DNA from: Haloglomus salinum
GTDB taxonomy: Archaea; Halobacteriota; Halobacteria; Halobacteriales; Haloarculaceae
DNA: 64,000 nucleotides
Assembly: GCF_024298825.1 (NCBI RefSeq)
Contig: NZ_CP101153.1
Coordinates: 2,666,001-2,730,000 of the forward strand
Direction: 5' to 3'
The notes beneath the pieces are model-generated. The model searched no databases. It saw only the letters and a list, made by a program, of their open reading frames with translations, and had not been told where the DNA came from. The position numbers were made by a program, and so were the translations under genes. Every line of letters begins with the position of its first letter. Within the stretch, counting starts at the first letter, position 1. Positions 1-14,767 of this stretch are shown piece after piece.

Positions 1-784
1 GTTCCGCGAGAGTACGGTTCGATACGACGCAGTAGACAACGAGTTCTACCTCCACATCTCGACTCGGCGGATAGACGGCGACGCAGAGGTTTCGGAAGAT
101 ACCGGGCACCCCGACCAAACGGTCCTCGGTATCGACCTCGGCGTCAACAGTCTTGCCGTCTCCTCGACCGGGCGCTTCTGGCAAGGAGACGATTACGACC
201 ACTGGTGCCGTGAGTTTGAGAAGCGACGCGGTGAGATGCAACAGCGCGGGACTCAATCCGCGCACAACGCCATACTTCGACTCGGCAAGCGCGAAGAAGC
301 GTGGCGGAAACAGTACATCCACACCGTCGCTAACGAACTTGTCTCGGAAGCCGTCGAACACGACTGCGACGTTATCGTGTTCGAGGACTTGACCGACATT
401 CGAGAGCGACTTCCGCACGCGAAGTGGCACCACGTGTGGGCGTTCCGACGCCTCGTCGAGTACGTCGCGTACAAAGCACCCGAGCGGGGCGTCACCGTCG
501 AACAAGTTGAGCCGAACCACACGTCCCAACGCTGTTCTCGGACGGACTGTGGGTTCACTCATGAGAACAACCGCCACGGAGAACACTTTGAGTGCCAGAA
601 GTGTGGGTATGAGGTGAACGCGGATTACAACGGCGCGAAGAACATCGGGCTACGGTACGCTCGAAAGCGGATACACAGACTCCGTTCCTCGCCTAAGTCG
701 GGGAGCGGAGACGCAGAAGTAGACCTGCGTATAACTGGTGGAACGTTGAGCGGCGAGAGTCACCGGCCTATCGCCGGTGGCTGA
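1..784 (+). CDS. tnpB: IS1341-type TnpB (IS200/IS605 superfamily), C-terminal 260 residues; 5' end outside window
   Basis: RNA-guided nuclease encoded by IS200/IS605-family elements. The reading frame is open from base 2, so the N-terminus lies before the window. All three RuvC-like acidic residues are visible: Asp in GIDLGVN (visible residue 45), Glu in VFEDL (128) and Asp in [10 protein letters not shown] (208). A CxxxxC...CxxC zinc finger sits between the last two (CSRTDC and CQKC). No frameshift or internal stop is seen, so the nuclease part looks intact. No tnpA transposase is visible, as is usual for IS1341-type elements. The last roughly 35 codons lie in DNA that can fold into several hairpins, as expected where the 3' end of tnpB doubles as guide-RNA scaffold. 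The gene converges on HMG-CoA synthase. Confidence 0.95.
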
Positions 785-860: not shown

Positions 861-2201
861 TTACACGTAGCGGTACTTGCGCTCGCCCATCCGGCCCCAG
901 CCGTCGAAGACGAACTCGTCCTCGGGCGTGGTCAACTCGTCGACGTCGGTCTCCTTCTCGTGGTTGTGGGCGTCGTGGATGCGCTCGTACTCGTCGAACG
1001 TCAGCTCGTAGCGGTCGCGGAGCTGGTCCTTCACGCCGAGCGCGCGGATGTTCTCCTCCCACCCGGGCTGGATGACCTCGTGGTGGATCTCGGCCTGCGC
1101 GCCGCTGCCGTAGGAGCCGACGAGCAGGCGCTCGCCCGCGAGGTCCTCGCCTGCCTCGGCGGCCTCCAGCAGCCCCGACGCCCGCGCGACGTGGACGCTG
1201 CCGGTGTACCAGTTCCCGCAGTACCGCGACAGCTCCAGCGTCGGCTCGACGGTCTCGGCGTACCAGTCCTGGTACACCTCTGTCTCGGCGAGTGCGTCCG
1301 TGTACTCCTTGAGCGCGTCCTGGAACGCCTCGATGTCGTCGTACTCTTCCTGCCGGGGCTGTCGCCCGAGCTCCTCGGCGAGCTGGTCCTCGTACTCCGT
1401 GTCCCGGGCGACGTGCCGGAACCCGAGCAGCGCGGCCTTCCGGACCATCCCCGGGAACGGGGTGTGGAACGGCACCAGCGCGAAGTCGTCGGGGTGGGTG
1501 TCGCCCGCGACGGACTCGTAGTCCATCAGCGCCTCCCGCATCCGCGCCAGGTACACCTGCACGGACCGCTTCCCGTCGACGCTCGGGAACTGCTGGTTGG
1601 GCTTCAGGAAGTCCGTCTCGTCGGCGCTGCCGTACCCCTGGTGGGTAGACAGCTCGACGAGGTCCGGGTCCTCGGCGATGAGCATCGCCACCGCGCCGGC
1701 GCCCTGCGTCGCCTCACCGGGGTCGCCACGGGCGTACAGCGCCGTGTCCGTCGCGATGACCAGCGCCGCCCGGCCACGATTCCGCCCCGCCCGGATCCAG
1801 TTGTACGCGTCGTCCAGCGACTGCGTGCCCGAGATGCAGGCGAACTTCCGCTCGCCCTTGTTGGCGTGGTGGAAGTCCTCGTCGTACACCTGCTCCAGAC
1901 AGCCCGCGATGTACGTCGAGACGGGCTTCGAGTTGTCGAACGAGGACTCGGTCGCCACGTCGATGCGGCCGATGTCAGCGGGTGTGAGGTCGCGCCGCTC
2001 CATCAACCGGTGGGCCGCGTTCGCGCCCATCGTCACGATGTCCTCGTACACGTCCGGGAACGAGGAGGCGAACAGGCCGAGCCCCTTCGTGTACTTGCCC
2101 GGGTCGTCGTCCTTCGCGGGCGCGTACGTCTCCGCGAGGTCCAGTCTGAGTTTCCCTGTGTGGATTTCGACTGCATCGATACCGACGGATTTCTCGGTCA
2201 T
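861..2201 (-). CDS. hmgB: Hydroxymethylglutaryl-CoA synthase
   Basis: Condenses acetyl-CoA with acetoacetyl-CoA to HMG-CoA, the step before HMG-CoA reductase in the mevalonate pathway that supplies archaeal isoprenoid lipids and carotenoids. The 446-residue protein has the thiolase-fold landmarks of the family: a Glu in ATESSFDNSKP (residue 85), the nucleophilic Cys in FACISGTQS (Cys122) and a His in ALVPFHTPFPGM. Length is normal for haloarchaea. A TATA-like CCATAAGGT lies about 27 nt upstream of the ATG (near 2220-2229), giving a leaderless or nearly leaderless mRNA. The stop codon touches the IS right end, so the element has inserted exactly behind the gene without truncating an obvious domain. 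Confidence 0.93.
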   Translation of the reverse strand: MTEKSVGIDAVEIHTGKLRLDLAETYAPAKDDDPGKYTKGLGLFASSFPDVYEDIVTMGANAAHRLMERRDLTPADIGRIDVATESSFDNSKPVSTYIAGCLEQVYDEDFHHANKGERKFACISGTQSLDDAYNWIRAGRNRGRAALVIATDTALYARGDPGEATQGAGAVAMLIAEDPDLVELSTHQGYGSADETDFLKPNQQFPSVDGKRSVQVYLARMREALMDYESVAGDTHPDDFALVPFHTPFPGMVRKAALLGFRHVARDTEYEDQLAEELGRQPRQEEYDDIEAFQDALKEYTDALAETEVYQDWYAETVEPTLELSRYCGNWYTGSVHVARASGLLEAAEAGEDLAGERLLVGSYGSGAQAEIHHEVIQPGWEENIRALGVKDQLRDRYELTFDEYERIHDAHNHEKETDVDELTTPEDEFVFDGWGRMGERKYRYV

Positions 2202-2269: not shown

Positions 2270-4147
2270 TCAGACTGTTGCCATGCCGCTCCCAGTCGCG
2301 CCATCCGTATCTGTCACGGTGACCTCGACCGAATCGGGCTTGTTGTTGCTGGTGACCGTGAACGTCTGAGTGATGGTGTCTCCCTCGCGGCCGGAAACGT
2401 CAATCGGCGACGCCGTAATCGCGTTCCCATCCCCGTTCTCGATGGTCGCCGTGTCTAGGTTCCCGTCGGCGTCATCTGGTGTGAATGTCACGCTTAGTCT
2501 ATCGTCCGAGTTGGAGTACGTCGCGCTGTTGACGGCCACGGACGGAGGTTGATTCCCCCCACCGTCTCCACCGTCCGTATCCCTGACCGTCACGGTCGTC
2601 GTGGCGGTGTCCGAGTCACCCTTGTTGTTCGTCACCTTCAACCGAACCGTGACATCGGTGTCTGCCCCCACGTCGACTCCATTGGCATCGATGGTGGCGG
2701 TTGGAGTAGCGGTGTCGTCTTCGTTGATAGTGAGGCCGTCGGGCTTGCTCCCGACGAACGACCACTCGTACGTGTCGATTTTCCCGGTACTGGACGTGCT
2801 GGTATCCCCATTCAACGTCCCCGTCGACCCCTCGTCTACTGACGAGTCGGAGTTGCTCGCGTCGGCCGTCACCGACGAGCTCCCACCGCTACTCTTCGGC
2901 GCGTCGATGTAGTACGTGGCCCTCGTCCCGTCGCTGTAGACGGCCTTGAAGACGAAGAAGTCGTCCTTGATGTTCTCGTTGAACTCGAAGGTCAGCGTCT
3001 CCGTTCCCCCGTCCGCACCGATTTCGATGTCCTGGTCGACGGTCTCGATCCGGTCGCGGATGCCGAGCCGGTCGGTATCGTTCCCGTTCAGGTCGGCGTA
3101 GTCCGGGCGGGTGCTGCTCCCGCCGGTGGCCCCGTAGTAGAACGGGATACGGGCCCGTGCGAGTGATTTCGCCTCGCTGTCGGTGTTCTTTAGTGTGACC
3201 TGGACATCGCTGTTGGAGCCCACATCGGACATGCTCACCAGCCGGACCTCGCTGAAGCCAGCAGGGTTGATGCTGCCGCCCCCGCCGCTCCCGCTCCCCG
3301 ACCCGAGCAGGCTCCCCGACCGCGCGCCGGACGGCGGCGCATCGTTGAGGCCGATGGGCCCGCAGTTCAGCTGGTAGCTGCCGGAGAGCGTGAGCGTGAG
3401 CGTACCGTCGGTCACGTCGATGTCGTCGGTCGGGACGGTCCCGTCCAGCACCTTGTCCTCCCACACGTCCTCGCTGTACGCGGTCGGGAGCTGTATCTCC
3501 GGGTCGACCACGTTCGTCGACAGCACGCCGCCGGGCACCGGCTCGACCGTCGCAGCGCCGGTTCCCGACTCCGAGAACTCGTTGCGGAGGGGAAGCAGGT
3601 TGATGCTATCGTCGGTTACGAGTTGCTGGCCCGAGCCTGGCAGCGTCTCGTCCGGGAACTCCCGGAACAGGACGGTGTTCTCGACCCGGTAGGTCGGGTC
3701 GCTGTCGTAGTAGTTGTAGCCGGCCCGGTACTCCAGCGCGCGAGTTTCCGGAACCGACGCCCCCGGGCACGCGTTGTTGGAGATTGTCTGCGGACTGCTG
3801 ACGCTGTCGTTGATGATGGTGATTTCGCGGGCTTCCGTCGTTCGAATGGTCCCCGACGGCTCCGCGGGATTCACGAACAACGACCGCGATGGGTACGCCG
3901 GTGCCAGGTCCACCTCCACGAACGACTGGTCGCCGGTTGCCGCGTCGAGGACGGCGTTCCGTGCGTCGAGCATGTCCGAGCGGACCTGTTCGCTGTGCTT
4001 GAACTCGATCTCCCCGTTCTGGTCCGGGACGACGAATATCTGGAACAGCGAGAGGTTGATGATGAGGATGGCGAACAGCAGCAGCGCTCCGAGCTGGATG
4101 GCCTGTGCCCGACCGTCCCACCGGGCTCCCTGTCCACCGGGCTCCAT
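2270..4147 (-). CDS. N-terminally anchored surface protein with pilin-like N-terminus and Ig/PKD-like domains (paralogue A)
   Basis: A 625-residue protein with no enzyme motif. Residues 13-20 (RAQAIQLG) followed by a hydrophobic segment to about residue 39 resemble a class III (prepilin-type) signal or an uncleaved N-terminal anchor. Residues 40 to about 260 form a module shared with the two genes upstream (DMLDARNAVLDAA, YPSRSLFVNPAEPSGT, YNYYDSDPTYRVENTVLFRE). After a Gly/Ser linker come a CARDB-like region (VRLVSMSDVGSNSDVQVTLKN), a PKD/Ig-like domain (about 425-525, ending TVTVRD) and a second Ig-like domain to the C-terminus. No C-terminal membrane segment or PGF-CTERM is present. A likely TATA element (GCTTAAG) lies about 30 nt before the ATG, so the gene probably has its own leaderless mRNA. 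Function is unknown; adhesion or cell-surface structure is inference. Confidence 0.8.
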   Translation of the reverse strand: MEPGGQGARWDGRAQAIQLGALLLFAILIINLSLFQIFVVPDQNGEIEFKHSEQVRSDMLDARNAVLDAATGDQSFVEVDLAPAYPSRSLFVNPAEPSGTIRTTEAREITIINDSVSSPQTISNNACPGASVPETRALEYRAGYNYYDSDPTYRVENTVLFREFPDETLPGSGQQLVTDDSINLLPLRNEFSESGTGAATVEPVPGGVLSTNVVDPEIQLPTAYSEDVWEDKVLDGTVPTDDIDVTDGTLTLTLSGSYQLNCGPIGLNDAPPSGARSGSLLGSGSGSGGGGSINPAGFSEVRLVSMSDVGSNSDVQVTLKNTDSEAKSLARARIPFYYGATGGSSTRPDYADLNGNDTDRLGIRDRIETVDQDIEIGADGGTETLTFEFNENIKDDFFVFKAVYSDGTRATYYIDAPKSSGGSSSVTADASNSDSSVDEGSTGTLNGDTSTSSTGKIDTYEWSFVGSKPDGLTINEDDTATPTATIDANGVDVGADTDVTVRLKVTNNKGDSDTATTTVTVRDTDGGDGGGNQPPSVAVNSATYSNSDDRLSVTFTPDDADGNLDTATIENGDGNAITASPIDVSGREGDTITQTFTVTSNNKPDSVEVTVTDTDGATGSGMATV

Positions 4148-4170
4148 TCCTTGCCCCTGCTTTCCGTCGC

Positions 4171-4180
4171 TCGCTTAAGT
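4171..4180 (-). promoter_or_regulatory. TATA-like box of surface paralogue A
   Basis: On the minus strand this reads ACTTAAGCGA and is centred about 30 nt before the ATG at 4147. The spacing fits a transcription start within a few bases of the start codon. Confidence 0.45.
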
Positions 4181-4259
4181 AGTTGCGGGCATATCTGGGT
4201 CTCCGGCCGGGACCGTCGCGCGACCGGTGAACTCGGTCGTTCCCTCCGCCGTCGCCCGA

Positions 4260-7200
4260 TTACTCCTGCTCGAAGCTCCCGCCGTCCCACTCGTACTTCA
4301 GCCCGTCACCGTCCGGGCACGGCGACGACGCCGTCTGTCCGCTTCCGGCCGCCGTTCCCTCACCGACGGCCGCGGCGCCGCTGGTCGACCCGCCGGCGTC
4401 GAAGTTCTCCATCGACGTTCCGGCCTTCAGCACCACCGTCTCGACCGGGTGGTCGCTGGTCCACTCGATGGCGACCGGTTCGCCGCCGTCCTTCGTCTCG
4501 GTGATGGTGATGTCGAGCGACTCGATGTCGTCGTCGACGGGACAGGCCGCGACGAAGCTGATGGCCTTCCGTGAGTCATCCTCGTCGTCGTTGTCATCGT
4601 CGTCACTATCTCCCTCACCGTCGTCGTCGCTGTCGTCGCTATCGCCATCTCTGCCATCACTGTCGCCGCTGCTCCCGCCGGCGGTCGCGGCCTCGTCGCC
4701 GAGATACCACGTGACGAGCTGCTGGCCGTCGAGTCCGGTCACGTTCAGCACGCTGTCCGGAGAGCCGGCGGGGAACCGGCTCGGCAGGCCACCGTCGCCG
4801 GCGCCGTACCTGGTCGTGTCCTGCACCTCGAAACCGACGCTGTCGAGCCCGACAACCGAGGGCCCCTCCTCGCCGACGGGGTCGCTCGTCCGGTTGACGC
4901 GGAGGTCGTTGCGCTCCTCGGGTTCGAACAGGCCCGTCGGAAGCTCCGGTCCGGGCGTCAGGTAGACCGCGCCGGGATACGTGTTCTCGTAGCCGAAGGT
5001 GGCCTCGGCCGTCCCGTCGCCGTCTTCCTCGTCGCAGCCACCGTCCTCCTCACCCTCCCACGACGAGCCGAAGTTCGGGTTGTCGGGGTCGGTGTCGTCG
5101 GGGTTGTTCCCGATACCACGGTCGTCCGTCCCTGGTGAGCCGTCGTCCTCCTCGACCTCACACTCGTCCTCGTCGCCGCTCCCGCTGTCGTCGCTCCCGC
5201 CATCGTCATCGCTCACCTCCCCCTCACAGTCCTCTTCCTGAGCGGGCGGGTCGTTGTCACTCGGGTTGCTGGGGTCGGTGTCACAGTCGTTCCCGTGACC
5301 GTTGTCGTCATCGTCTCCTTCGTCGTCCTCGTCGTCGCTTCCGTCCTCACCGTCGCCCCCATCCACGGGCGTAGTCCCAGTCACGACCGGCGAGATGTCG
5401 CCATCGTCGTCCGGGCCACCGACGACCCGGACGTTGTCGACGTGCCAGAAGTCGTCGGTCCCGTCGCCGTCGAGCTGGTGGAACCGGAGTCGGAACTCCT
5501 CGTGGCTGGCGACGCTCCCGGGCAGGTAGACCCGCCGTTCGAGCCCTCCATCGGCCAGCGCGGGGTCGTCCTGCTCGATGCGGTCGACCCGGTGCCACTC
5601 CCCGTCCGCGCCATAGAACTCCACCTCGAGGTCCTCCGGCACGGCGTCGGGCGCGCCGCTCGGGCTCTCGGCGCTGGGCAGGTCTGCGGTGTATCCGTCG
5701 GACCCGTTCTGGACCCAGTAGGCCACCTCGACGAGGTCGTAGTCACCCGTGTCGACGGTCGGGCCCGTGATGCGCTGCTCGCCGTCCGCGGTGTAGGCCG
5801 ACTGCCCACAGGTCTCGCTCGTGAGGTCGTTGACGCCGGCGATGCCGTCGCCGCTCGCGCTCCAGCTAGCGTTGGCCAGCCGTGCGGCGTCGTCGGCGCC
5901 GCGGGTCTCGAACGTCGACCACAGCAGCACCGCCTCGTCGCCGTCCAGGTTCGTCGGGTCCGAGCAGACGACCCCGTCGCCGTCACTGCCGTCGTCGCCG
6001 TCACTTCCATCACCGCCATCACTGCCGTCCCCGCCGTCGCTACCGTCACCACCGCCCGGCGGCCGTTCGAGTTCCTCGACCGTCACGGTCGCCTCGTTGT
6101 TGGTCGTGTTCCGGTCGCCGGCCGCGCCCACGTCCGCGATGGTCGCGGTGTTGTCGAGCCCCGAGGGCACCGGGCTGGCGATGGCCGTGATGGTGACCGT
6201 CTCCGTCGTACCCTCCGCGAGGCCGCTGGAGAGCCGCCACGTGCCCGTCGCCGGATCGTACTCGCCGGCGCTCTCCTCGTGCGACAGCGGAATGAACCCG
6301 GTCGGCAGCTCGTCACGAACCACGAGGCCGCTGGGGATGTCGCCCGGCCCGCGGTTGCCGACGGTCAGGTCGAACGTCACCGTGTCGCCGCTGTCGACGC
6401 GCGCCGTGCCGTCCCCGTTCGGGTCCTGGGGCGAGGTCATCTCCAGGTACGGGTCCGCCCCGCCGATGGTCACCGACGCCGTGTCCACGTCGTTGTCGAC
6501 GCCCGGGTCCTCGACCGCCGATTCCGTCCGGGCGACCGTGTACGGGAGCGCCTCGCCCGTACTCCCGCTGGCGCGCATCGTCACGTTCAGCGTGACCGAC
6601 TCGCCGGCCGGGAGTCCGTCCGGAATCGTCCAGGTCCCGCTTGCCGGGTCGTAGGTGGGCCCGTTCGCGGGACTGCTCGCCGATACCGGGTCGAACTGAC
6701 GGGGATCGTAGCCGTCACTCACGCGGATCGGTCCGGTCGCCCGCCCCGGACCGAGGTTCTTGACCGTCGTACTGAAGGTGACCTCCGCCCCGTCGCCGAC
6801 CGCGGGCTTGTCGGCGGTCACGTTGACCGCGATGTCGGCCGGGCGCTGGCGCAGGTGGACCGTCTCCGTCGAGCCGTCGTCGAACAGCAGCGTCACTGAC
6901 AGGTTGGCGTCGCCGGCCGTCGTCGGTACGAGCGTTCCCAGGTCGGCGACGGACCCGTCGTCGGTCCGGTACTCGCCCACTTCGAACTCGAAGGTCGCGT
7001 TCCCCGGGACCGTCGCGTTCTCGGCGTCGTAGCCCGGGAGGGCGTCGAGGTCCGCGAACCGATATCGCGTGCCGTCGGCCGAGACGTTCGCCTCGGCGTC
7101 CGCGAAGCCGTCGTCGCCGCTGCCGTCGCCATCGACCGGCACGTCGACCTCCCGGTCGCCGCCGCGGTCGACCGCCGCCGCGAGCGTCGTCTCCGTCTCG

Positions 7201-10200
7201 AACCCGACGATCTCCGTCGGCCCATCGCCGCTCGACAGGTCCACGCTCACGCCCGTCGTCTTCTCGATTTCACCGTCACCGTCGATGTCCTCGCCGGTCG
7301 GCGTGACGCCCTCGACGGTCACGTTCGCGCTCGCGGGCTGGGGGTCCTCGCCGGGGAGCGCCCCGGTGTCGTACCAGTCGTCGGCCGTGTCCGTGTCGAT
7401 GTACTGGCCGGCGTCGTCCTGCTCACGGTACGCTGTCGTGTCCTCGGTGCCGCCGGTGAAGGTGTGCTCCCAGTCGCCCGTGCGAGGGGCCTCCGTTCCG
7501 TAGGCGTAGCGGTCCAGTTCGGTCTCTGCGGTCCCGTCGCTGTCCAGGTCGCCCCGCAGCGTCAGCGTCGCGCCCGCGTCCGTCAGCACGTCCGAGACCG
7601 CGAGGTCGGTGAACTGCGCGCCCGACCCCGCCGGCCCGTCGATGACGATGACCCGGTCGGTCGTCACGCCGTGCTCGGCCGCGAATCGGTCCACGTCGAC
7701 CGTCTCGCCGACCAGGTAGACCGGACCGCCTGTCGTGGCGACGGGCGCCGCGACGTCGTCTAGCGAGACGTCGAGTCGACCCTCCCCGTCCGGGGCGCCC
7801 GGCCGACGGACGGCCAGCTCGTACCCGCTCGTGTCGACGGGCCGCTCGAAGTCCAGTCGGACGTACTCGTCGCTGGACTCGTCGCCGGCCGCGGTGGTCG
7901 CGTCGCGGGCCTCGACGGCCGCGATACGGCCACTCCGCAGTTCGCTCCCGTAGACGTACGTGTCGACGGTCGCATCCGACGCGTCGCGGAGCGTCACGGT
8001 CCCACCATCGTCCGCGAGGAACGACGCGGGGAGCCCGTCAGCGAGCTCCTCGGCCCGGAGTACCTGACTCGGGTCCACGCCCTGCCCGTCGGCGAACGTC
8101 GCCGGGTCGATTCCCCCGCCAACGACGTACACCGGGTCGCCGTCACGTGCCGTCCCATCGACGGCTCCGAGGTCGAGCGTTGCCACGCCCGCGGTGGGGT
8201 CGGCGCCGTCGACCGTCGCCGTCCAGCCGGTGGTGTCGGCACCGCCGGGGAACGCGAGCCGGACCCAGCCGTCGCGGTCGGCCGCGGACGCCCCGTCACC
8301 GCCCGGGAAGTCGCCGTCCGAGTCGGCCGTCACGGCGTCGATGCGACCGTTAGCCGTCCCCATCCAGGCCGCGCTGTCGACGGTCGTCCCCCCGGCGTCC
8401 TGCAGTTCGAGTGCCCCGCCCAGGTCCGAGAGTACGTCCTCGGGCGTCGGATTCCCGTCCGTGCTCGGCACGGCGCCACCGAACCGGAACACCTGGGACG
8501 GCTCCACGCCCCGCTCGGTCGCGAACGCCTCGGGGTCGATTCCCTCGCCCACGAGGTACACCGTCCCCGCCTCGGATGCGGCCTCCGCGACGGCCGGATC
8601 TGTCAGCGCGTAGGCCACCGATTCCGTGCCCGGGCCGACCGTCGTCCGCTCGACGGCGACCGTCCAGCCCGTCGTCGTGTCCACGGAGCCGGTGAAATCC
8701 AGGCGGGCGAACTCGGCGCTCGCGTCACCGCTCCGCGCGGGGTCGACCGTCGTCACCGAGCCGGATTCGGGGTTCCCACTCCCGGTCGGCGTTCCGTCGT
8801 ACGCGTACCGGTCGACGAGCCGGTCGCGGTCGTCGCGGAGCCGCAGCGTCGCGCCGGGTTCTGGCAGCGCGTTCATCGCGAGTCCGGGTTCGGCCACCGC
8901 CCCGATGGGTACCACCTGCGACGGGTCCACGCTGCGGTCGGCGGCGAACCGGTCACGGTCCACCGCCCGCCCGACCAGATAGACGTCCTGCCCGGCCGCG
9001 ATGGTGTCACGGGCCGCCGGAACGCCCAGGTCGAGTCGGCCGGCGCGCCCCGGCCCGTCGATGGCAAGCGTCCAGCCGGCTGCGTCGAACGCCCGGTCCA
9101 CGTCCAGCCGCAGGAACTCGTCGGTCGCGCCCCCGGCGCCGGTCGCGTCGCGCGGCGTCACGTCGGCGATACCCGCCGCGGGTCCGCCACCGTAGGCGTA
9201 CGTGTCCACGGTGTCGCCGGCAACGTCCTGCAGGGTGAGCGATGCGCCGTCATCGTCGAGCAGGTCGGCGTCGACGAGACCACTCTCGGCGAGCGAGGCC
9301 GCAGGTACGACCCGGTTGGCCGTGAGATCGCGAGCGCTCGCGAACGCCGCGGGATCGACCCCTTCGCCCACCAGGTAGACCGGCCCGGGGGCGGTGCCGG
9401 TCGTGTCCGCCAGCGCCGTCAGGTCGAGCCGTTCGGTCGTTCCGTCACCGTCGTCGACGAGCAACTGCCAGCCCGCCGTATCCACTGCCGTCTCGAAGTC
9501 GAGGCGCGTGTACTCGTCGCTCGCGACGCTCGGCGTCCCGCTCCCGGTTGCCTCGAGCGGCACCACGCGCCCGATGCTGGCCCGCTGGATGCCGTCGTAC
9601 GCCCGCTCGTCGACCAGCTCACCCTCGCCCGGCGGCCCGTCGTGGAGTCGGACGGTCCCGCCGGTTCCGGGGACGAACTCGTCGTCTGCGAGTCCCGCCG
9701 GAGCGAGTGTCGTGGCGCGGAAGACGCGGTCGGTCGAGACGCCGTGTTCTCTTGCGAACCTCGTCCGATTCACGTCCCCTCCGACGACGTACACCGGTCC
9801 CGTGACCGACCCGTCGGTACCGACCCGCTCGGCGACCGGGCCGAGGTCGATTGTCTCGCGGCGCCCGTCGGCGACGACGCTCAGCGTGTGGTTCGCCCCG
9901 TCGAGCAGGTCGGCCGGCCGCTCGAACCGGAGTTCGACGTGTTCGTCGGCGGGGCTCCCGCCCGGCCCGGCCGGCTGCACGCCCGCAATCCGCCCGCCGT
10001 CCGAGCGATAGGCGAACGCGTCGACGATGGTCGAGTCCTGCCGGAGCAGCACCGTCCCGCGCTGATCGTCCAGCACGTCGGTGAACGCATCACCGTCGCC
10101 TGGGTCGGCGTCCGAGAGTTCGTTCCGTGCCGTCCCATCGACGAGCGACGCGCCGGCGTCCGGGGCCAGCGCCGCGGACCGCACGACCACGTCGTTCTCG

Positions 10201-11855
10201 TCCAGGCCGTTCCGCGCGGCGAACGCTTCCAGTCCCGCCGCCCCCTCGTACGAGTCGTCGTACGCGTTCTCGCCGACGACGTAGATATCGACCGGACCGC
10301 TCGTCACCTCGTCGACCGTCACGCTCGTCAGACTGGACAGGGGAACGCCCCGAGCGTCGGCGACGTCCACCAGCACCTGATTGGCATCACCGGCGAAGTA
10401 GATCTCGTCGGCACCGCCGGTCACGCCGGCACGGTCCAGGCTTCCCGCCAGTGCGACCGTGTTCCGGACGCTCCCGTCCCGGTTCACGAACTCGAGCGTG
10501 TGGTTCGCCGCGGCGATTCCGTCCGCGTCGGTGACGGTCACCCGGACGAAGTCCCCGCTCTGGTCGTCCCTGACGTTCGGGCTGACGGCTGTGACGAGCG
10601 GCGGCATCCGGTCGTCCCGCACCGCCTCGGCGGTGTTCTCGACGCCGATGTCGTAGGTCACCTGCCCCTTGTCACCGTGGATACCCGGGGCCTCCACGCC
10701 GAGGGTCGCGGTGGCGCCGTCGCCGGGGGCATTGACCGGCGCCCGGTAGGTGAACGTCGCCCGACCGTCCTCGTCCGTGACGGCGCCGACCTCACCGACG
10801 CTGTTGACCGGTCCGACCACGCGACCGACCGACGGCTGGAGGATGTCGAGTTCGATACCGCTGACGGGGTTGTTGTACCGGTCACGCACCTGCACGGTGA
10901 ACTGGCGCTGCTTCCCCTCGTCGATGGGGTCCGGGTTCCGGAGCGCCGTCACGTAGGCGGCCGGCTCCGACACCGACCCCGTCAGGCCAATCTTCGACAG
11001 TTTGGCGTCGTACGTCACGCCAGGCTCCATCTTCAGCGTGAGCGTCCCACAGGGGGCGTCGGCCCGACTCGCCGTACAGCTGTACGACCGGACGTAGGCG
11101 TCCGGGTCGGTCCCAGCGGGGTCGAGTTCGCTCGCGAGCAGGTCGCTCCAGGCCGACTTCGGAATCCGTGTCGGGATCCGGAGCGTCATCGGCTCAGCGT
11201 TCGGGCTCCGCAGGTCCACGTTCACCTGCGAGGCCGACAGGGCCTCGGGCTCGATCGTCGCCGTCCCGGTCCGGCTGATGTCGCGCTCGCCGTCGACGAA
11301 CGCCAGGGAGAGCTGCTTCCCGTCGACCAGCCGCTGGCCGCTCTGCATCGTCGTGCTCTCGTCCCCGCTTCGGTAGAGGACGGAGCTCTCGTAGGCCGCT
11401 TGTGGGGCGTCCTCGTAGTAGTTGTAGCCCGGATCGTAGAGGACCCGGCTGTTCGTGTAGCCGCTCCGAACCGTCCCGCTCCAGAAATCCGTCGTCTCGG
11501 GGTTCGCTGCGACCGCGTTCGACAGCGACCCGGCGCCCAGTGAGTCGATACGCAGCGACCCCTGTGGCTGCTGTGGATTCTGCAGGACCGTCCGCTCGGG
11601 GTAGGTCGTTCCCAGACGGACGGTCGCTGTCTGCCCGGTCGTCGTGTCGGCCGACCCCAGCACCGCAGCGCGTACGTCCAGCATGTCCTGTTCGATTCCC
11701 TGCTGGTGCTGGACCTCCGCGCGCTCGTTCTGCTGTGGCACGACGACAGCCTGTGTCACCGCCAGCGAAACCACCACCAGTGCCAGAACGAGCACTGCCG
11801 CGATAGCCGCCACCTGGGCCCGCTCTGCCTCGGAACCCAACCCCCGGACATACAT
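4260..11855 (-). CDS. Giant (about 2,531 aa) N-terminally anchored surface protein: Big_1-like, seven LTD-like, two DUF11, MAM-like and acidic regions (paralogue B)
   Basis: A single uninterrupted frame. I start it at the ATG at 11855 (MYVRGLGSEAERAQVAAI) because a TATA-like TTTTAGTATT lies about 31 nt upstream; starts at 11867 and 11942 are also open. Approximate residues: 12-14 RAQ motif and 15-42 membrane segment; to about 300 the module shared with paralogues A and C; 302-398 bacterial Ig-like (Big_1) domain; 418-1500 seven lamin-tail-like (LTD) repeats, each with a (D/E)EYxRLDF strand, a GPVYLVGExVDP strand and a VDxYAYG end; 1675-1792 and 1802-1928 DUF11 repeats; 1932-1958 Gly-Ser-Asp linker; 1973-2148 MAM/lectin-like sandwich; 2162-2282 and part of the tail are Asp/Glu-rich with several Cys. 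There is no C-terminal anchor or sorting signal. It is probably a filamentous surface adhesin or matrix protein; this is inference from domain types. Confidence 0.82.
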   Translation of the reverse strand: MYVRGLGSEAERAQVAAIAAVLVLALVVVSLAVTQAVVVPQQNERAEVQHQQGIEQDMLDVRAAVLGSADTTTGQTATVRLGTTYPERTVLQNPQQPQGSLRIDSLGAGSLSNAVAANPETTDFWSGTVRSGYTNSRVLYDPGYNYYEDAPQAAYESSVLYRSGDESTTMQSGQRLVDGKQLSLAFVDGERDISRTGTATIEPEALSASQVNVDLRSPNAEPMTLRIPTRIPKSAWSDLLASELDPAGTDPDAYVRSYSCTASRADAPCGTLTLKMEPGVTYDAKLSKIGLTGSVSEPAAYVTALRNPDPIDEGKQRQFTVQVRDRYNNPVSGIELDILQPSVGRVVGPVNSVGEVGAVTDEDGRATFTYRAPVNAPGDGATATLGVEAPGIHGDKGQVTYDIGVENTAEAVRDDRMPPLVTAVSPNVRDDQSGDFVRVTVTDADGIAAANHTLEFVNRDGSVRNTVALAGSLDRAGVTGGADEIYFAGDANQVLVDVADARGVPLSSLTSVTVDEVTSGPVDIYVVGENAYDDSYEGAAGLEAFAARNGLDENDVVVRSAALAPDAGASLVDGTARNELSDADPGDGDAFTDVLDDQRGTVLLRQDSTIVDAFAYRSDGGRIAGVQPAGPGGSPADEHVELRFERPADLLDGANHTLSVVADGRRETIDLGPVAERVGTDGSVTGPVYVVGGDVNRTRFAREHGVSTDRVFRATTLAPAGLADDEFVPGTGGTVRLHDGPPGEGELVDERAYDGIQRASIGRVVPLEATGSGTPSVASDEYTRLDFETAVDTAGWQLLVDDGDGTTERLDLTALADTTGTAPGPVYLVGEGVDPAAFASARDLTANRVVPAASLAESGLVDADLLDDDGASLTLQDVAGDTVDTYAYGGGPAAGIADVTPRDATGAGGATDEFLRLDVDRAFDAAGWTLAIDGPGRAGRLDLGVPAARDTIAAGQDVYLVGRAVDRDRFAADRSVDPSQVVPIGAVAEPGLAMNALPEPGATLRLRDDRDRLVDRYAYDGTPTGSGNPESGSVTTVDPARSGDASAEFARLDFTGSVDTTTGWTVAVERTTVGPGTESVAYALTDPAVAEAASEAGTVYLVGEGIDPEAFATERGVEPSQVFRFGGAVPSTDGNPTPEDVLSDLGGALELQDAGGTTVDSAAWMGTANGRIDAVTADSDGDFPGGDGASAADRDGWVRLAFPGGADTTGWTATVDGADPTAGVATLDLGAVDGTARDGDPVYVVGGGIDPATFADGQGVDPSQVLRAEELADGLPASFLADDGGTVTLRDASDATVDTYVYGSELRSGRIAAVEARDATTAAGDESSDEYVRLDFERPVDTSGYELAVRRPGAPDGEGRLDVSLDDVAAPVATTGGPVYLVGETVDVDRFAAEHGVTTDRVIVIDGPAGSGAQFTDLAVSDVLTDAGATLTLRGDLDSDGTAETELDRYAYGTEAPRTGDWEHTFTGGTEDTTAYREQDDAGQYIDTDTADDWYDTGALPGEDPQPASANVTVEGVTPTGEDIDGDGEIEKTTGVSVDLSSGDGPTEIVGFETETTLAAAVDRGGDREVDVPVDGDGSGDDGFADAEANVSADGTRYRFADLDALPGYDAENATVPGNATFEFEVGEYRTDDGSVADLGTLVPTTAGDANLSVTLLFDDGSTETVHLRQRPADIAVNVTADKPAVGDGAEVTFSTTVKNLGPGRATGPIRVSDGYDPRQFDPVSASSPANGPTYDPASGTWTIPDGLPAGESVTLNVTMRASGSTGEALPYTVARTESAVEDPGVDNDVDTASVTIGGADPYLEMTSPQDPNGDGTARVDSGDTVTFDLTVGNRGPGDIPSGLVVRDELPTGFIPLSHEESAGEYDPATGTWRLSSGLAEGTTETVTITAIASPVPSGLDNTATIADVGAAGDRNTTNNEATVTVEELERPPGGGDGSDGGDGSDGGDGSDGDDGSDGDGVVCSDPTNLDGDEAVLLWSTFETRGADDAARLANASWSASGDGIAGVNDLTSETCGQSAYTADGEQRITGPTVDTGDYDLVEVAYWVQNGSDGYTADLPSAESPSGAPDAVPEDLEVEFYGADGEWHRVDRIEQDDPALADGGLERRVYLPGSVASHEEFRLRFHQLDGDGTDDFWHVDNVRVVGGPDDDGDISPVVTGTTPVDGGDGEDGSDDEDDEGDDDDNGHGNDCDTDPSNPSDNDPPAQEEDCEGEVSDDDGGSDDSGSGDEDECEVEEDDGSPGTDDRGIGNNPDDTDPDNPNFGSSWEGEEDGGCDEEDGDGTAEATFGYENTYPGAVYLTPGPELPTGLFEPEERNDLRVNRTSDPVGEEGPSVVGLDSVGFEVQDTTRYGAGDGGLPSRFPAGSPDSVLNVTGLDGQQLVTWYLGDEAATAGGSSGDSDGRDGDSDDSDDDGEGDSDDDDNDDEDDSRKAISFVAACPVDDDIESLDITITETKDGGEPVAIEWTSDHPVETVVLKAGTSMENFDAGGSTSGAAAVGEGTAAGSGQTASSPCPDGDGLKYEWDGGSFEQE
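7350..10600 (-). repeat. Array of seven LTD-like protein repeats inside the giant gene
   Basis: A recurring unit of about 400-490 nt (133-163 codons). The most recognisable strand, (G)PVY(L/V)VG followed by a (V/I)D and an F-A pair, is encoded near 10290 (first, divergent copy), 9795, 9380, 8980, 8560, 8130 and 7720. Each is followed by a Gly-Ala-x-Leu-x-Leu strand and VDxYAYG, then (D/E)E(F/Y)xRLDF and GWxLAVD. This order matches the lamin-tail (LTD) fold. Copies are diverged at DNA level, so the array is not recent. Confidence 0.7.
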
Positions 11856-11880
11856 CTTGATTACCATCACGGTAGTCGTT

Positions 11881-11892
11881 AATACTAAAAGG
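11881..11892 (-). promoter_or_regulatory. TATA-like box of giant surface gene
   Basis: The minus strand reads CCTTTTAGTATT here, centred about 31 nt before the ATG at 11855. It supports that start, because the longer start at 11942 would lie upstream of the promoter. Confidence 0.45.
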
Positions 11893-11994
11893 GCTTCTGA
11901 CAGTGCCATCCAAAAGCCCGCCACTCCAGGGTCACGAACCACGGCTATTCGGCCCTGAAACGCCGTACCTGCCGGTCCCCCGTCGTCTCCGCGC

Positions 11995-14079
11995 TCAGGG
12001 CGAGCAGCTCAGACCGTCCGCCAGCGTCAGCGTCTGTCCCGCCTCGACGAGCGTTCCCTCACACTGCACCTGCTGTCTGGTGTCATCGGTGAACGTCACG
12101 GTGACGTCGATGTCGTTGGCGGCGGCCACGCTGGGGGTGAACTCGATGATAGCGGTCCCGGACGGTCCCGACGGCGGGTTCACGAGCGAGACCGTCGTGT
12201 CGTCCGACGGGTCGGCGTCGACCGTGACCTCCGGCACGTCGAAGTCGTCCGTGGCGCTGTAGGTGAACGTCACGCGGTCGGTCTGGGGCTGGTTGCCCTG
12301 CCCCTCTCCTTGCCCTTGGCTGGGATTGCCGCCACCGGCGTAGTTGGCGCTCACGCTCAGTGACCTGACGGTCGGCGCCTGGTCGCCCGCTTCGGCCTCG
12401 CAGACATCCTCGGGCCCAGTCGTCCGCCAGTCGTCCGCCGAGACGTTCGTATCCACGTAGGCCTCGTCGTCCACGCGGCGGAGGCCGATGCCGTCGGCGT
12501 CGAACTGAACCCCTTCGGCTCCGTTGTACGTGAGGCTGTCATAGACTGGCCCGCCGCCATCGGGAACGAGTTCGAGCACGCCGCTGTCACTGACATCGAG
12601 CGTTCCAGTCGACTCGGAGCCACAGGGGTTGGCGTTGACGTATACCTCCTCCCGAGACATGGCATTGTCAATATTGACGGTCACATCGCCCCCGTCGGGG
12701 TTGTACACGAGGTCGTAGTCCCCGCCATCCGGGAAGTAGAGCCGGACGAACTCATCGGCGGCCGAATCGTCTCCGACATTCGGTGACGGTTCCACCGCGG
12801 TAATGAGCGGCCGTGTGTACGCGTCGTTCTCGACCCGCTCGGCGTTGTCCTCGACGGTGAGGTTGACGGCGACGGTCTGCGGGTCGCTCCGGTCGGCTGC
12901 GTCGCCGCCGGGGCCGGTCGCGTTGAGCGTCACCTCCCGGCTCTGCCGGACGTTCAGCGGCGCGCGGTAGCTGAACGTCGCCCGGCCGTTGGCGTCGGTC
13001 GTCGCCGTCGCCGTGCCGCCGCTCCCGCTCCCGTCGCCGACCACCCAGCCGGTCACGGGCTGGTCCACCTCCACCTCCTTCCCGGCGAGGGGGTTGTTGA
13101 ACCGGTCGCGGACCTCGACCGTCACCTGCTGGCGGTCGCCCTCGTCGAGGCTGTCGCCGCTCCCCCGGGTGACGACCACGTACGCTACCTCTCCGGCTGC
13201 TCCCTCGGCGGGGCTCCGGCTCCCCACACCGACGGCGCCGAGCCGGAGGTTGTAGCTCTGCCCCTCGACGAGGGTGACGACGAGGAGGTTCCCCTGGGCT
13301 GCCGGATTGTCCCGGACCTCGATCTCCTCGACGTAGCCGTCGGGGTTCCTGGTGGCCATCTCACCGCTCAACAGGTCCTTCCACTCCGATTCCGACAACT
13401 GCGTCGGGAGCCGAAGCGTAATCGCCCCCTCCTCGCTCGTCACGCTCACGGTCCGGTTCGTCGCGGAGACGACCCGCGGGTCGACGGCGACCGCGCGGCT
13501 CGTCGCCGTGTCGTACTCCCCCATCAGTCCGACCAGCGAGATCGTCCGGGAGTTGATGAACGACTGGTTGGAGAGTGTGAGCCGCTCGCCGCTCTCGAAC
13601 CGGTTGTACAGCACGGAGGTCTCGAACACGGTCTCCGGGGCCCCACCGTAGGCGTTGTACGACGGCTCGTACACCAGTCCGTTCGTCGAGAAGTTCCGAG
13701 CCGTCCCGTTCCAGTAGTTCTGAGCGCCGTTGCTGGTCGTCGCCGTCGCATTGGTGATGTTGAATCCGCCCCGGTCGACGGTCCGGAGGGTCCCGCCCGG
13801 CGGGGCCGGGTTCAACAGGAGGGTCCGCGAGGGGTAGGTCGTTCCCAGCCGGACCTGCGTGGTCCGGGGCTCGCCGGTCGCGGCCGACCGGAGCAGGTCG
13901 CTCCGCAGGTCGACCATGTCGCTCTGGAGGTTCTGGTTGTGGTTGAACTCCACCTGAGCGTTCTCCTGTGGGACGAGCACCGCCTGGAAGAGGGCGAGAC
14001 CGATGATGAGGAAGGCGAACAGCACGAGGACGCCGATCTGCACCGGCTGCCCCCGCGCTCCCCCCGTCGTGCCGTACAT
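11995..14079 (-). CDS. N-terminally anchored surface protein with Big_1-like and one LTD-like domain (paralogue C)
   Basis: I choose the ATG at 14079 (MYGTTGGARGQPVQIG; 694 residues) because a TATA-like CTTTTATC lies about 33 nt upstream; an ATG at 14142 is also in frame but precedes that box. Residues 9-16 (RGQPVQIG) and the following hydrophobic stretch to about 36 resemble a class III signal/anchor. The shared N-terminal module continues to about residue 280 (VRLGTTYPSRTLLLNP, YNAYGGAPETVFETSVLYN). A Big_1-like domain follows (VTVEVRDRFNNPLAGKEVEV ... DANGRATFSYRAP), then one LTD-like domain (ADEFVRLYF ... VYDSLTYNG) ending in YVDTNVSADDWRTTG, which resembles the end of the LTD array in the giant neighbour (YIDTDTADDWYDTG). 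A Gly-Asn-Gln linker and a C-terminal Ig-like domain end the protein. No C-terminal anchor is seen. Surface role inferred. Confidence 0.8.
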   Translation of the reverse strand: MYGTTGGARGQPVQIGVLVLFAFLIIGLALFQAVLVPQENAQVEFNHNQNLQSDMVDLRSDLLRSAATGEPRTTQVRLGTTYPSRTLLLNPAPPGGTLRTVDRGGFNITNATATTSNGAQNYWNGTARNFSTNGLVYEPSYNAYGGAPETVFETSVLYNRFESGERLTLSNQSFINSRTISLVGLMGEYDTATSRAVAVDPRVVSATNRTVSVTSEEGAITLRLPTQLSESEWKDLLSGEMATRNPDGYVEEIEVRDNPAAQGNLLVVTLVEGQSYNLRLGAVGVGSRSPAEGAAGEVAYVVVTRGSGDSLDEGDRQQVTVEVRDRFNNPLAGKEVEVDQPVTGWVVGDGSGSGGTATATTDANGRATFSYRAPLNVRQSREVTLNATGPGGDAADRSDPQTVAVNLTVEDNAERVENDAYTRPLITAVEPSPNVGDDSAADEFVRLYFPDGGDYDLVYNPDGGDVTVNIDNAMSREEVYVNANPCGSESTGTLDVSDSGVLELVPDGGGPVYDSLTYNGAEGVQFDADGIGLRRVDDEAYVDTNVSADDWRTTGPEDVCEAEAGDQAPTVRSLSVSANYAGGGNPSQGQGEGQGNQPQTDRVTFTYSATDDFDVPEVTVDADPSDDTTVSLVNPPSGPSGTAIIEFTPSVAAANDIDVTVTFTDDTRQQVQCEGTLVEAGQTLTLADGLSCSP

Positions 14080-14188: not shown

Positions 14189-14767
14189 TCAGTCCTCCTC
14201 TTCGACGACCTCGGGGTCGGCGAGTGCCGACTGGAGGCTGTCGAGCCCGTTCACCCAGTCGAGAACGAGTGCGTTCTCTATCTCCTCGACGACGCTCGTG
14301 TCAATCTCATCGCCCGCGAAGATGCGGGTCCCGGCCTGCGCGCAGTAGGCGAACGCGGCATCGAGGTCCTGCTCGTTCCCCGCGTCGATGGCCGCGTCGA
14401 CGTACTCGGCCGCGCTGGCCTCCTCGGCGGGCGCGTTGGCGACGTACTCCTCGGCCGCCGAGATGACGGGCTCGAGCGAGGCCTGCACGCTCTGGATGAG
14501 CATCGTCTTGTCCTCGTCGTCGAACTCCACCTCGGCGAAGATGATGTCACGCATCTGCCCGAGCTTCTCCAGCGCGCTCTCCTCGGCCAGCTCCTCGTCC
14601 TCGGCGTCGGTGACGATCTTCGCGACCGCGATGGCCGTATCGTCGCGCAGGTTCCAGAGGAAGCGTGCCGAATCCTCCTCTTCGGGGTTGAAGTCCTCTT
14701 CACGGAGCCGGCCGACCCAGTTCTGCCAGCGCTCCGCCGTGTAGTACTCGTCCGGGGGCGTGCTCAT
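14189..14767 (-). CDS. DUF2150 family protein
   Basis: A 192-residue acidic, probably helical cytoplasmic protein. It matches the haloarchaeal DUF2150 family from memory (YYTAERWQNWVGRLREED at the start, SARFLWNLRDDTAIAVAKIV). No signal peptide or membrane segment and no catalytic motif are visible. The ATG at 14767 is preceded by a TATA-like GCATAAC about 27 nt upstream, while a longer open frame to 15385 runs through the neighbouring hydrolase on the wrong frame and is not coding. Function unknown. Confidence 0.85.
   Translation of the reverse strand: MSTPPDEYYTAERWQNWVGRLREEDFNPEEEDSARFLWNLRDDTAIAVAKIVTDAEDEELAEESALEKLGQMRDIIFAEVEFDDEDKTMLIQSVQASLEPVISAAEEYVANAPAEEASAAEYVDAAIDAGNEQDLDAAFAYCAQAGTRIFAGDEIDTSVVEEIENALVLDWVNGLDSLQSALADPEVVEEED

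What the first reader, a model, noticed from the sequence alone, without database searches (positions are those of the whole stretch)
2270..14079. Three tandem surface genes sharing one pilin-like N-terminal module and different outer domains
All three proteins begin with R-(A/G)-Q just before a hydrophobic helix, then a shared module (VVPQxN, DMxDxR, YPxRTLxxNP, YNYY...VLY). Beyond that they differ: PKD/Ig-like in A, seven LTD plus DUF11 plus MAM-like in B, and Big_1 plus one LTD in C. None has a C-terminal anchor. This looks like a recombining family of N-terminally anchored surface fibres, not described to my knowledge as a named system.
Basis: partly seen in the sequence, partly recalled or inferred. 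Interest (0 to 1): 0.72.

Follow-up and report, generated by a model that had tools for sequence, protein, structure and literature searches.

The report
Modular pilins with swappable outer tails
Three neighbouring genes of a salt-loving archaeon make pilus-type surface proteins with one shared base and very different outer parts, and comparison with close relatives shows that in this family the outer part is repeatedly replaced wholesale, as if cells trade adhesive or recognition tips on a fixed stem.

Summary
Observation real. Genes C (14079-11995), B (11855-4260) and A (4147-2270), all minus strand in a Haloglomus genome, share a ~290-aa N-terminal module that looks like a type IV pilin: class III signal motif, one predicted 59-residue helix, all-beta head (pLDDT 95). 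It occurs in 337 of 391 Halobacteria genomes; of 104 regions read, 74 place it beside DUF2150/HMG-CoA synthase (the window's locus) and 18 beside PilB-PilC. It is very probably the predicted minor pilin arCOG02911 (PMC4858521), so not an undescribed family. The new part is the tail. Against sister species H. halophilum (flanks about 90-94% identical), five of eight family genes lose all alignability over their 3' part (once the whole gene); gene A is 97-100% identical up to window 2883, then unrelated to its stop. Core-locus pairs in other genera agree: 9 of 14 family genes versus 5 of 99 control genes. No silent donor copy of A's tail was found. Best reading: modular minor pilins (pilin, Ig stalk, exchangeable adhesive or recognition tail). 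Cleavage, assembly and tail function are untested. 'LTD' and 'MAM' labels are unsupported.

The parts
11995..14079 (-). gene C, 694 aa: pilin-type module, Big_1-type Ig domain, unassigned C-terminal domains
   Evidence: 96% identical to its H. halophilum ortholog
4260..11855 (-). gene B, 2531 aa: pilin-type module, Big_1-type Ig domain, seven repeats, two DUF11, acidic linkers
   Evidence: about 88% and 79% identical in two parts to its H. halophilum ortholog
2270..4147 (-). gene A, 625 aa: pilin-type module, a middle domain, PKD/Ig-like tail
13216..14079 (-). pilin-type module of C (residues 1-288; modelled: helix 10-68, beta head 74-284)
10974..11855 (-). pilin-type module of B
3338..4147 (-). 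pilin-type module of A
14047..14055 (-). class III signal motif R-G-Q of C (predicted cut after G)
   Evidence: sequence
11814..11822 (-). class III signal motif R-A-Q of B (predicted cut after A)
   Evidence: sequence
4103..4111 (-). class III signal motif R-A-Q of A (predicted cut after A)
   Evidence: sequence
12961..13143 (-). Big_1-type Ig domain of C
   Evidence: E 7e-5, under the curated cut-off; fold: (model residues 297-412)
10743..10937 (-). Big_1-type Ig domain of B
   Evidence: E 6e-4, under the curated cut-off
6078..6404 (-). best of the two DUF11 stretches of B
2585..2854 (-). PKD domain of A (K319L-like)
   Evidence: E 6.9e-7
2270..2882 (-). exchanged tail of A: unalignable in H. 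halophilum between conserved flanks
861..2201 (-). HMG-CoA synthase, downstream landmark of the core locus
14189..14767 (-). DUF2150 protein, upstream landmark of the core locus
   Evidence: Pfam hit on the homolog in L053
14940..15782 (-). TatD-like hydrolase, upstream landmark of the core locus

Best explanation
A, B and C are large modular minor pilins (pilin-type subunits with grafted domains). The short leader ends in R-A/G and is cut by the prepilin peptidase; the helix that follows sits in the membrane and can be packed into a type IV filament by a PilB/PilC machine encoded elsewhere in the genome. The conserved beta head and an Ig stalk then present a variable C-terminal tail outside the cell for adhesion or recognition. 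The tail is the part that changes: whole tails are replaced, most likely by homologous recombination with DNA from other strains, the conserved module/stalk on one side and the conserved downstream gene on the other serving as homology arms. SHOWN by computation: module homology, signal motif, helix-plus-beta prediction, PilB-PilC neighbourhood of paralogs, wholesale tail replacement. INFERRED: cleavage, assembly into a pilus, adhesion/recognition, donor and mechanism of the exchange.
For: Signal motif: strict rule met by 106 of 116 modules against 28 of 88 other proteins with an N-terminal hydrophobic helix; all ten misses still show R-G/A or E-G at the helix. Model: single helix 10-68 starting at the predicted cut, then all-beta, pLDDT 95.2, pTM 0.89. 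Pilin_N matches 23 and DUF7289 49 of 77 relatives at E<=0.1; Natrinema PilA2 is the top PDB profile hit (E 0.0024, helix only). 18 of 104 regions have the gene next to PilB/PilC on the same strand, in haloarchaea and other orders, including the window's own genome. A prepilin peptidase family gene is in the genome. Tails hold surface-type domains: Big_1 in 76 of 99, PKD, CARDB, PA14, laminin-G, DUF2341; one homolog is module + Big_1 + DUF2341 + H-type lectin. Tail replacement; tail relatives on other core genes.
Against: The window locus itself has no PilB/PilC gene. The beta head matches no solved pilin head or any other structure. A, B and C fail the curated Pfam pilin models. 2531 aa is very large for a pilin. 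No experiment shows cleavage, filament localisation or adhesion. Three PilB-PilC-locus pairs show no tail loss.
Confidence: 0.6

Rival explanations
1. Free-standing membrane-anchored stalks: the helix stays in the membrane, cut or not, and each protein stands alone through the S-layer without entering a filament.
For: Most members, including A-C, lie away from PilB/PilC (74 of 104 regions at the DUF2150/HMG-CoA synthase locus); sizes up to 2.5 kDa-scale residues counts (B 2531 aa) would be awkward in a filament; the beta head resembles no known pilin head.
Against: Homologs recur directly behind PilB-PilC in distant orders; published work says haloarchaeal PilB/PilC act on pilins encoded in trans and that stand-alone pilin genes are common (PMC4858521); large modular pilins are known (PMC9934059).
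Confidence: 0.25
2. A conflict or self/non-self system: the exchanged tails are effector- or receptor-like variable domains, as proposed for VARTIG in Thermococcales or polymorphic toxin systems, and the pilin module only delivers or displays them.
For: C-terminal hypervariability by in situ exchange is the hallmark of VARTIG (PMC8416519) and is seen here.
Against: The tail domains that could be named are structural or adhesive (Big_1, PKD, CARDB, PA14, laminin-G); no toxin-like domain was seen among the listed families; no small immunity-type gene is required by the locus, where HMG-CoA synthase follows directly in many genomes.
Confidence: 0.08
3. No exchange: the tails are simply fast-evolving or low-complexity sequence that drifts beyond recognition.
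For: Some pairs decline gradually along the tail; B's break lies in an acidic low-complexity linker.
Against: In gene A identity falls from 60 of 60 to 13 and 4 of 60 per block at one point, and 94% identity resumes at window 2261, just past the stop. Similar sharp edges occur at other loci of the same two species and at 95%-identical flanks in another genus (L083/L133). The two tails of A are of different domain content.
Confidence: 0.07

Closest known systems
arCOG02911, predicted minor pilin of euryarchaeal type IV pili (Makarova, Koonin, Albers 2016, PMC4858521)
   Same: Found with PilB/TadC genes across euryarchaeal orders and in haloarchaea; prone to duplication; variable length; class III signal peptide; beta-rich after the helix.
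   Different: Described length 250-550 aa, here up to 2531 aa; the syntenic site beside HMG-CoA synthase and the exchange of tails are not in the passages read. Identity of the two families could not be tested directly.
Modular minor pilins PilB and PilC of Streptococcus sanguinis type 4 pili (PMC9934059)
   Same: Pilin moiety with extra domains grafted at the C-terminus (PilC: Ig-like plus lectin), used for adhesion at the pilus tip.
   Different: Bacterial, one form per gene, no tail exchange described in what was read; no sequence relationship tested.
VARTIG, hypervariable Ig module of Thermococcales (PMC8416519)
   Same: Large Ig-type surface protein whose C-terminal region is exchanged in situ between species.
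   Different: Other family (arCOG07710) with a C-terminal sorting signal and downstream small Ig genes; no pilin module is described. Its authors report no counterpart outside Thermococcales.
Pfam DUF7289 (PF23960) and Pilin_N (PF07790)
   Same: Many relatives give matches over the N-terminal helix, some over much of the module.
   Different: A and C give no match and B stays below the cut-off; the strong DUF7289 genes of this genome are other genes at 1.06-1.09 Mb.

Membership tests
Type IV pilin-type subunit | Class III signal peptide: short leader ending in G/A, basic residue before it, then an uncharged hydrophobic stretch | tested here: met
   R-G-Q / R-A-Q in C, B, A; strict rule met by 106 of 116 family modules, 28 of 88 control proteins with N-terminal helix
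Type IV pilin-type subunit | Long N-terminal helix of about 50 residues carrying a beta-rich globular head | tested here: met
   Predicted helix 10-68, beta 74-284, pLDDT 95.2; prediction only, and packing of helix on head was not inspected
Type IV pilin-type subunit | Head of a known pilin fold | tested here: inconclusive
   No PDB match above noise for the module alone
Type IV pilin-type subunit | Genes with assembly ATPase (PilB) and platform protein (PilC) | tested here: met
   Met for the family (18 of 104 regions); not met at the window locus itself
Type IV pilin-type subunit | Cleavage by prepilin peptidase and presence in a filament | not testable with these tools
   Only the presence of one PF01478 gene in the genome was checked
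arCOG02911 | Membership by sequence (arCOG profile) | not testable with these tools
   arCOG alignments are not held; supplements could not be read
arCOG02911 | Shared by PilB/TadC loci of several euryarchaeal groups | tested here: met
arCOG02911 | Prone to duplication, variable length (about 250-550 aa) | tested here: met
   8 copies here; tandem copies in L055, L058, L059, L068, L132. Lengths vary but exceed the published range in many members (A 625, C 694, B 2531 aa)
arCOG02911 | All-beta, Ig-like fold | tested here: inconclusive
   All-beta after the helix; Ig fold not recognised in the module, but present in the next domain
Pfam DUF7289 (PF23960) | Score over the curated cut-off of 27 bits | tested here: not met
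   A and C none, B 15.8 bits; the paralog in L046 reaches 27.3
Pfam Pilin_N (PF07790) | Score over the curated cut-off of 25.2 bits | tested here: not met
   No match for A, B, C modules
VARTIG | C-terminal region hypervariable by in situ exchange | tested here: met
VARTIG | C-terminal sorting signal/anchor | tested here: not met
   No hydrophobic C-terminus in A, B, C
VARTIG | arCOG07710 sequence and RNase III-like neighbour | not tested
   Neighbours found are DUF2150, TatD, HMG-CoA synthase; arCOG profile not held
Lamin tail domain (LTD, PF00932) for the repeats of B and the domain of C | Pfam LTD match | tested here: not met
   No hit at E<=10 for any of the seven repeats or C's stretch

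The most novel reading that the evidence does not exclude
Haloarchaea run a hypervariable surface-display system on type IV pilins: a conserved pilin module and Ig stalk at fixed syntenic sites carry outer tails that are exchanged wholesale between strains and species by homologous recombination through conserved flanks. It would be a haloarchaeal counterpart of VARTIG, tuning adhesion, choice of mating partner or escape from viruses that use pili as receptors.
Probability: 0.45. Interest if true: 0.78.

Novelty: new variant of a known kind. Interest (0 to 1): 0.58.

Why it matters
It turns a row of odd hypothetical proteins into members of a near-universal haloarchaeal pilin-type family whose outer tail is swapped between relatives. 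If so, haloarchaea have a modular, recombining adhesive or recognition surface. The authors of VARTIG looked for comparable hypervariable modules outside Thermococcales and found none, so this would extend that idea and give a concrete place to study adhesion specificity, mating barriers and virus receptors in archaea. The fixed core locus beside HMG-CoA synthase makes the variation easy to read in any haloarchaeal genome.

Tried and rejected
Single-sequence Pfam/NCBIfam searches named no family for the module; only diverse relatives revealed kinship to Pilin_N/DUF7289. Recent tandem triplication considered and rejected: A groups with the single core gene of a same-genus MAG (100/100), C and B with a core gene of another genus (94/89), and the three are not one clade. 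Silent donor cassettes for gene A sought in both genomes and not found. LTD and MAM labels tested and not supported. Foldseek and VIA searches with the module alone gave nothing above noise in PDB or in the viral library; with the Ig domain included, Ig/invasin-type matches fill the list. Literature searches for DUF7289 and for guessed Haloferax volcanii locus tags returned nothing.
Full report
WHAT IS THERE. The window (G000:C1:2666001-2730000) comes from a haloarchaeon very close to Haloglomus halophilum ZY41. Three minus-strand genes run C (14079-11995, 694 aa), B (11855-4260, 2531 aa), A (4147-2270, 625 aa), between TatD-like and DUF2150 genes upstream and HMG-CoA synthase downstream. Their N-termini are homologous over about 290 aa. 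Beyond that the tails differ: PKD in A; seven repeats, two DUF11 and acidic linkers in B; Big_1 and unassigned sequence in C. Upstream of each proposed ATG there is a T-rich, TATA-like stretch; this was seen by eye and not tested.

THE MODULE IS PILIN-LIKE. It begins with R-G/A followed by Q or V and a hydrophobic helix. A strict class III rule is met by 106 of 116 family modules; of 88 other proteins with an N-terminal hydrophobic helix in the same regions 28 meet it. All ten misses still show R-G/A (nine) or E-G (one) at the helix. AlphaFold predicts one helix, residues 10-68, starting at the predicted cut, then an all-beta head, mean pLDDT 95.2 and pTM 0.89. Of 77 relatives, 23 match Pilin_N and 49 match DUF7289 at E<=0.1, while A and C match neither and B matches DUF7289 only weakly. 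A profile search of PDB sequences puts Natrinema PilA2 first (E 0.0024, helix only). The beta head matched no solved structure, and its fold is left open.

WHERE IT OCCURS. The module is found in 337 of 391 Halobacteria genomes sampled and, with weaker scores, in other orders of the phylum. Copy numbers in those calls are lower bounds because few candidates per genome were scored. Among 104 regions read around hits (mostly strong matches, so a biased sample), 74 have it next to DUF2150 or HMG-CoA synthase on the same strand, 18 next to PilB or PilC, 12 elsewhere. The order PilB-PilC-module recurs in haloarchaea and in other orders, and is found at two places in the window's own genome (L045, with two units, and L046). 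The window's three genes sit at the core site that usually holds one. In the tree of 115 modules A joins the single core gene of a same-genus MAG, B and C join a core gene of another genus, and the three are not a clade; the cluster is therefore not a recent triplication. H. halophilum has the same three genes and eight family members in all.

THE TAILS ARE EXCHANGED. Gene A and its H. halophilum ortholog are 94.5% identical to residue 418 and unrelated from there to the stop. At DNA level the stretch upstream of the break (window 2883 to about 3550) is about 97-100% identical, window 2270-2882 is unalignable, and 94% identity resumes at window 2261, just past the stop. At four other regions of this genome the flanks are about 90-94% identical (87% at one far end) and a break falls on a family gene: the whole gene in L044, from inside the module to the stop in L046, the tail only in L045 (gene at 12776) and in L047; the second L045 gene is intact. 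L047 also has two breaks outside the family gene. With A, five of eight family genes are affected; C is conserved and B nearly so. Scored by one rule (first third aligned, last third not), 3 of 6 scorable family genes and 2 of 54 other genes qualify (Fisher p 0.005). Over 15 pairs of core-locus regions in other genera the counts are 9 of 14 against 5 of 99 (p 5e-7). Some pairs share a member and some control cases may only mark the end of synteny, so the p-values are guides. Three PilB-PilC-locus pairs from related genomes show no tail loss, but two pilus-locus genes of this genome do, so locus type does not decide it.

WHERE TAILS COME FROM. No second copy of either A tail exists in the two Haloglomus genomes or the same-genus MAG, which argues against silent cassettes for this gene. 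Relatives of A's tail (35-47% identical) turn up in 13 other genomes of 242 searched; at least eight of these hits lie in the distal part of a family gene (by position in the regions or by the same open frame as). This suggests a pool of tails used by the family, old rather than recent at that distance.

WHAT THE TAILS LOOK LIKE. In 99 tails Big_1 is in 76, PKD families come next, and CARDB, PA14, SdrD_B, DUF2341, laminin-G and LTD are rare. One homolog is module, Big_1, DUF2341 and H-type lectin; DUF2341 is the domain that Makarova and colleagues link to PilY-type pilus adhesins. This points to adhesion or recognition, but no tail function was tested.

COMPARISON WITH THE KNOWN. The published description of arCOG02911 (minor pilin shared by euryarchaeal pili, prone to duplication, variable length, FlaFind-positive, beta-rich) fits the family on the features tested, except that lengths here exceed the stated range and an Ig-like fold of the head was not recognised. 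Sequence identity of the two could not be tested. Modular minor pilins with an Ig and a lectin domain are known from Streptococcus sanguinis. In situ exchange of C-terminal Ig regions is known from VARTIG of Thermococcales, whose authors found no close counterpart elsewhere. The combination seen here, an exchangeable tail on a pilin-type module in haloarchaea, was not met in the papers read.

LIMITS. Gene calls outside the window are heuristic; region sampling favoured strong hits; alignment loss was judged by blastn at E<=1e-8; all eight loci were compared in only one pair of sister species; and cleavage, assembly and function rest on prediction.

Noticed in passing
window 2-784 (+): Open frame with a TnpB/OrfB-like zinc-ribbon sequence (CxxC pairs, NADYNGAKN) next to HMG-CoA synthase, at the edge of the window; recognised by eye only.
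   Followed up: no
window about 5003-5383 (inside gene B): Acidic low-complexity linker that is unalignable between the two Haloglomus species while both sides are conserved.
   Followed up: partly
L045 (G000:C1:3990000-4009999): Two PilB-PilC-module units in a row in the window's own genome; only the module gene at 12776 has an exchanged tail against H. halophilum, the one at 6601 is 98.7% identical.
   Followed up: partly
L046 7576-9438: Module gene behind PilB3-like ATPase and PilC, followed by a response-regulator-like gene; only 37% identical to its syntenic counterpart in H. halophilum although flanks are 93-94% identical.
   Followed up: partly
L068 6598-11216 (genome G466): Two adjacent module genes in a non-haloarchaeal genome, one carrying Big_1, DUF2341 and H-type lectin domains.
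   Followed up: no
G000:C1 1059606-1092030 (L144-L146): Three strong DUF7289 (PF23960) genes, a related pilin-like family of unknown function that the module profile did not pick up.
   Followed up: no
model of window 13216-14079, residues 74-284: The beta head is modelled with high confidence (pLDDT 95) yet has no recognisable solved or viral relative.
   Followed up: partly
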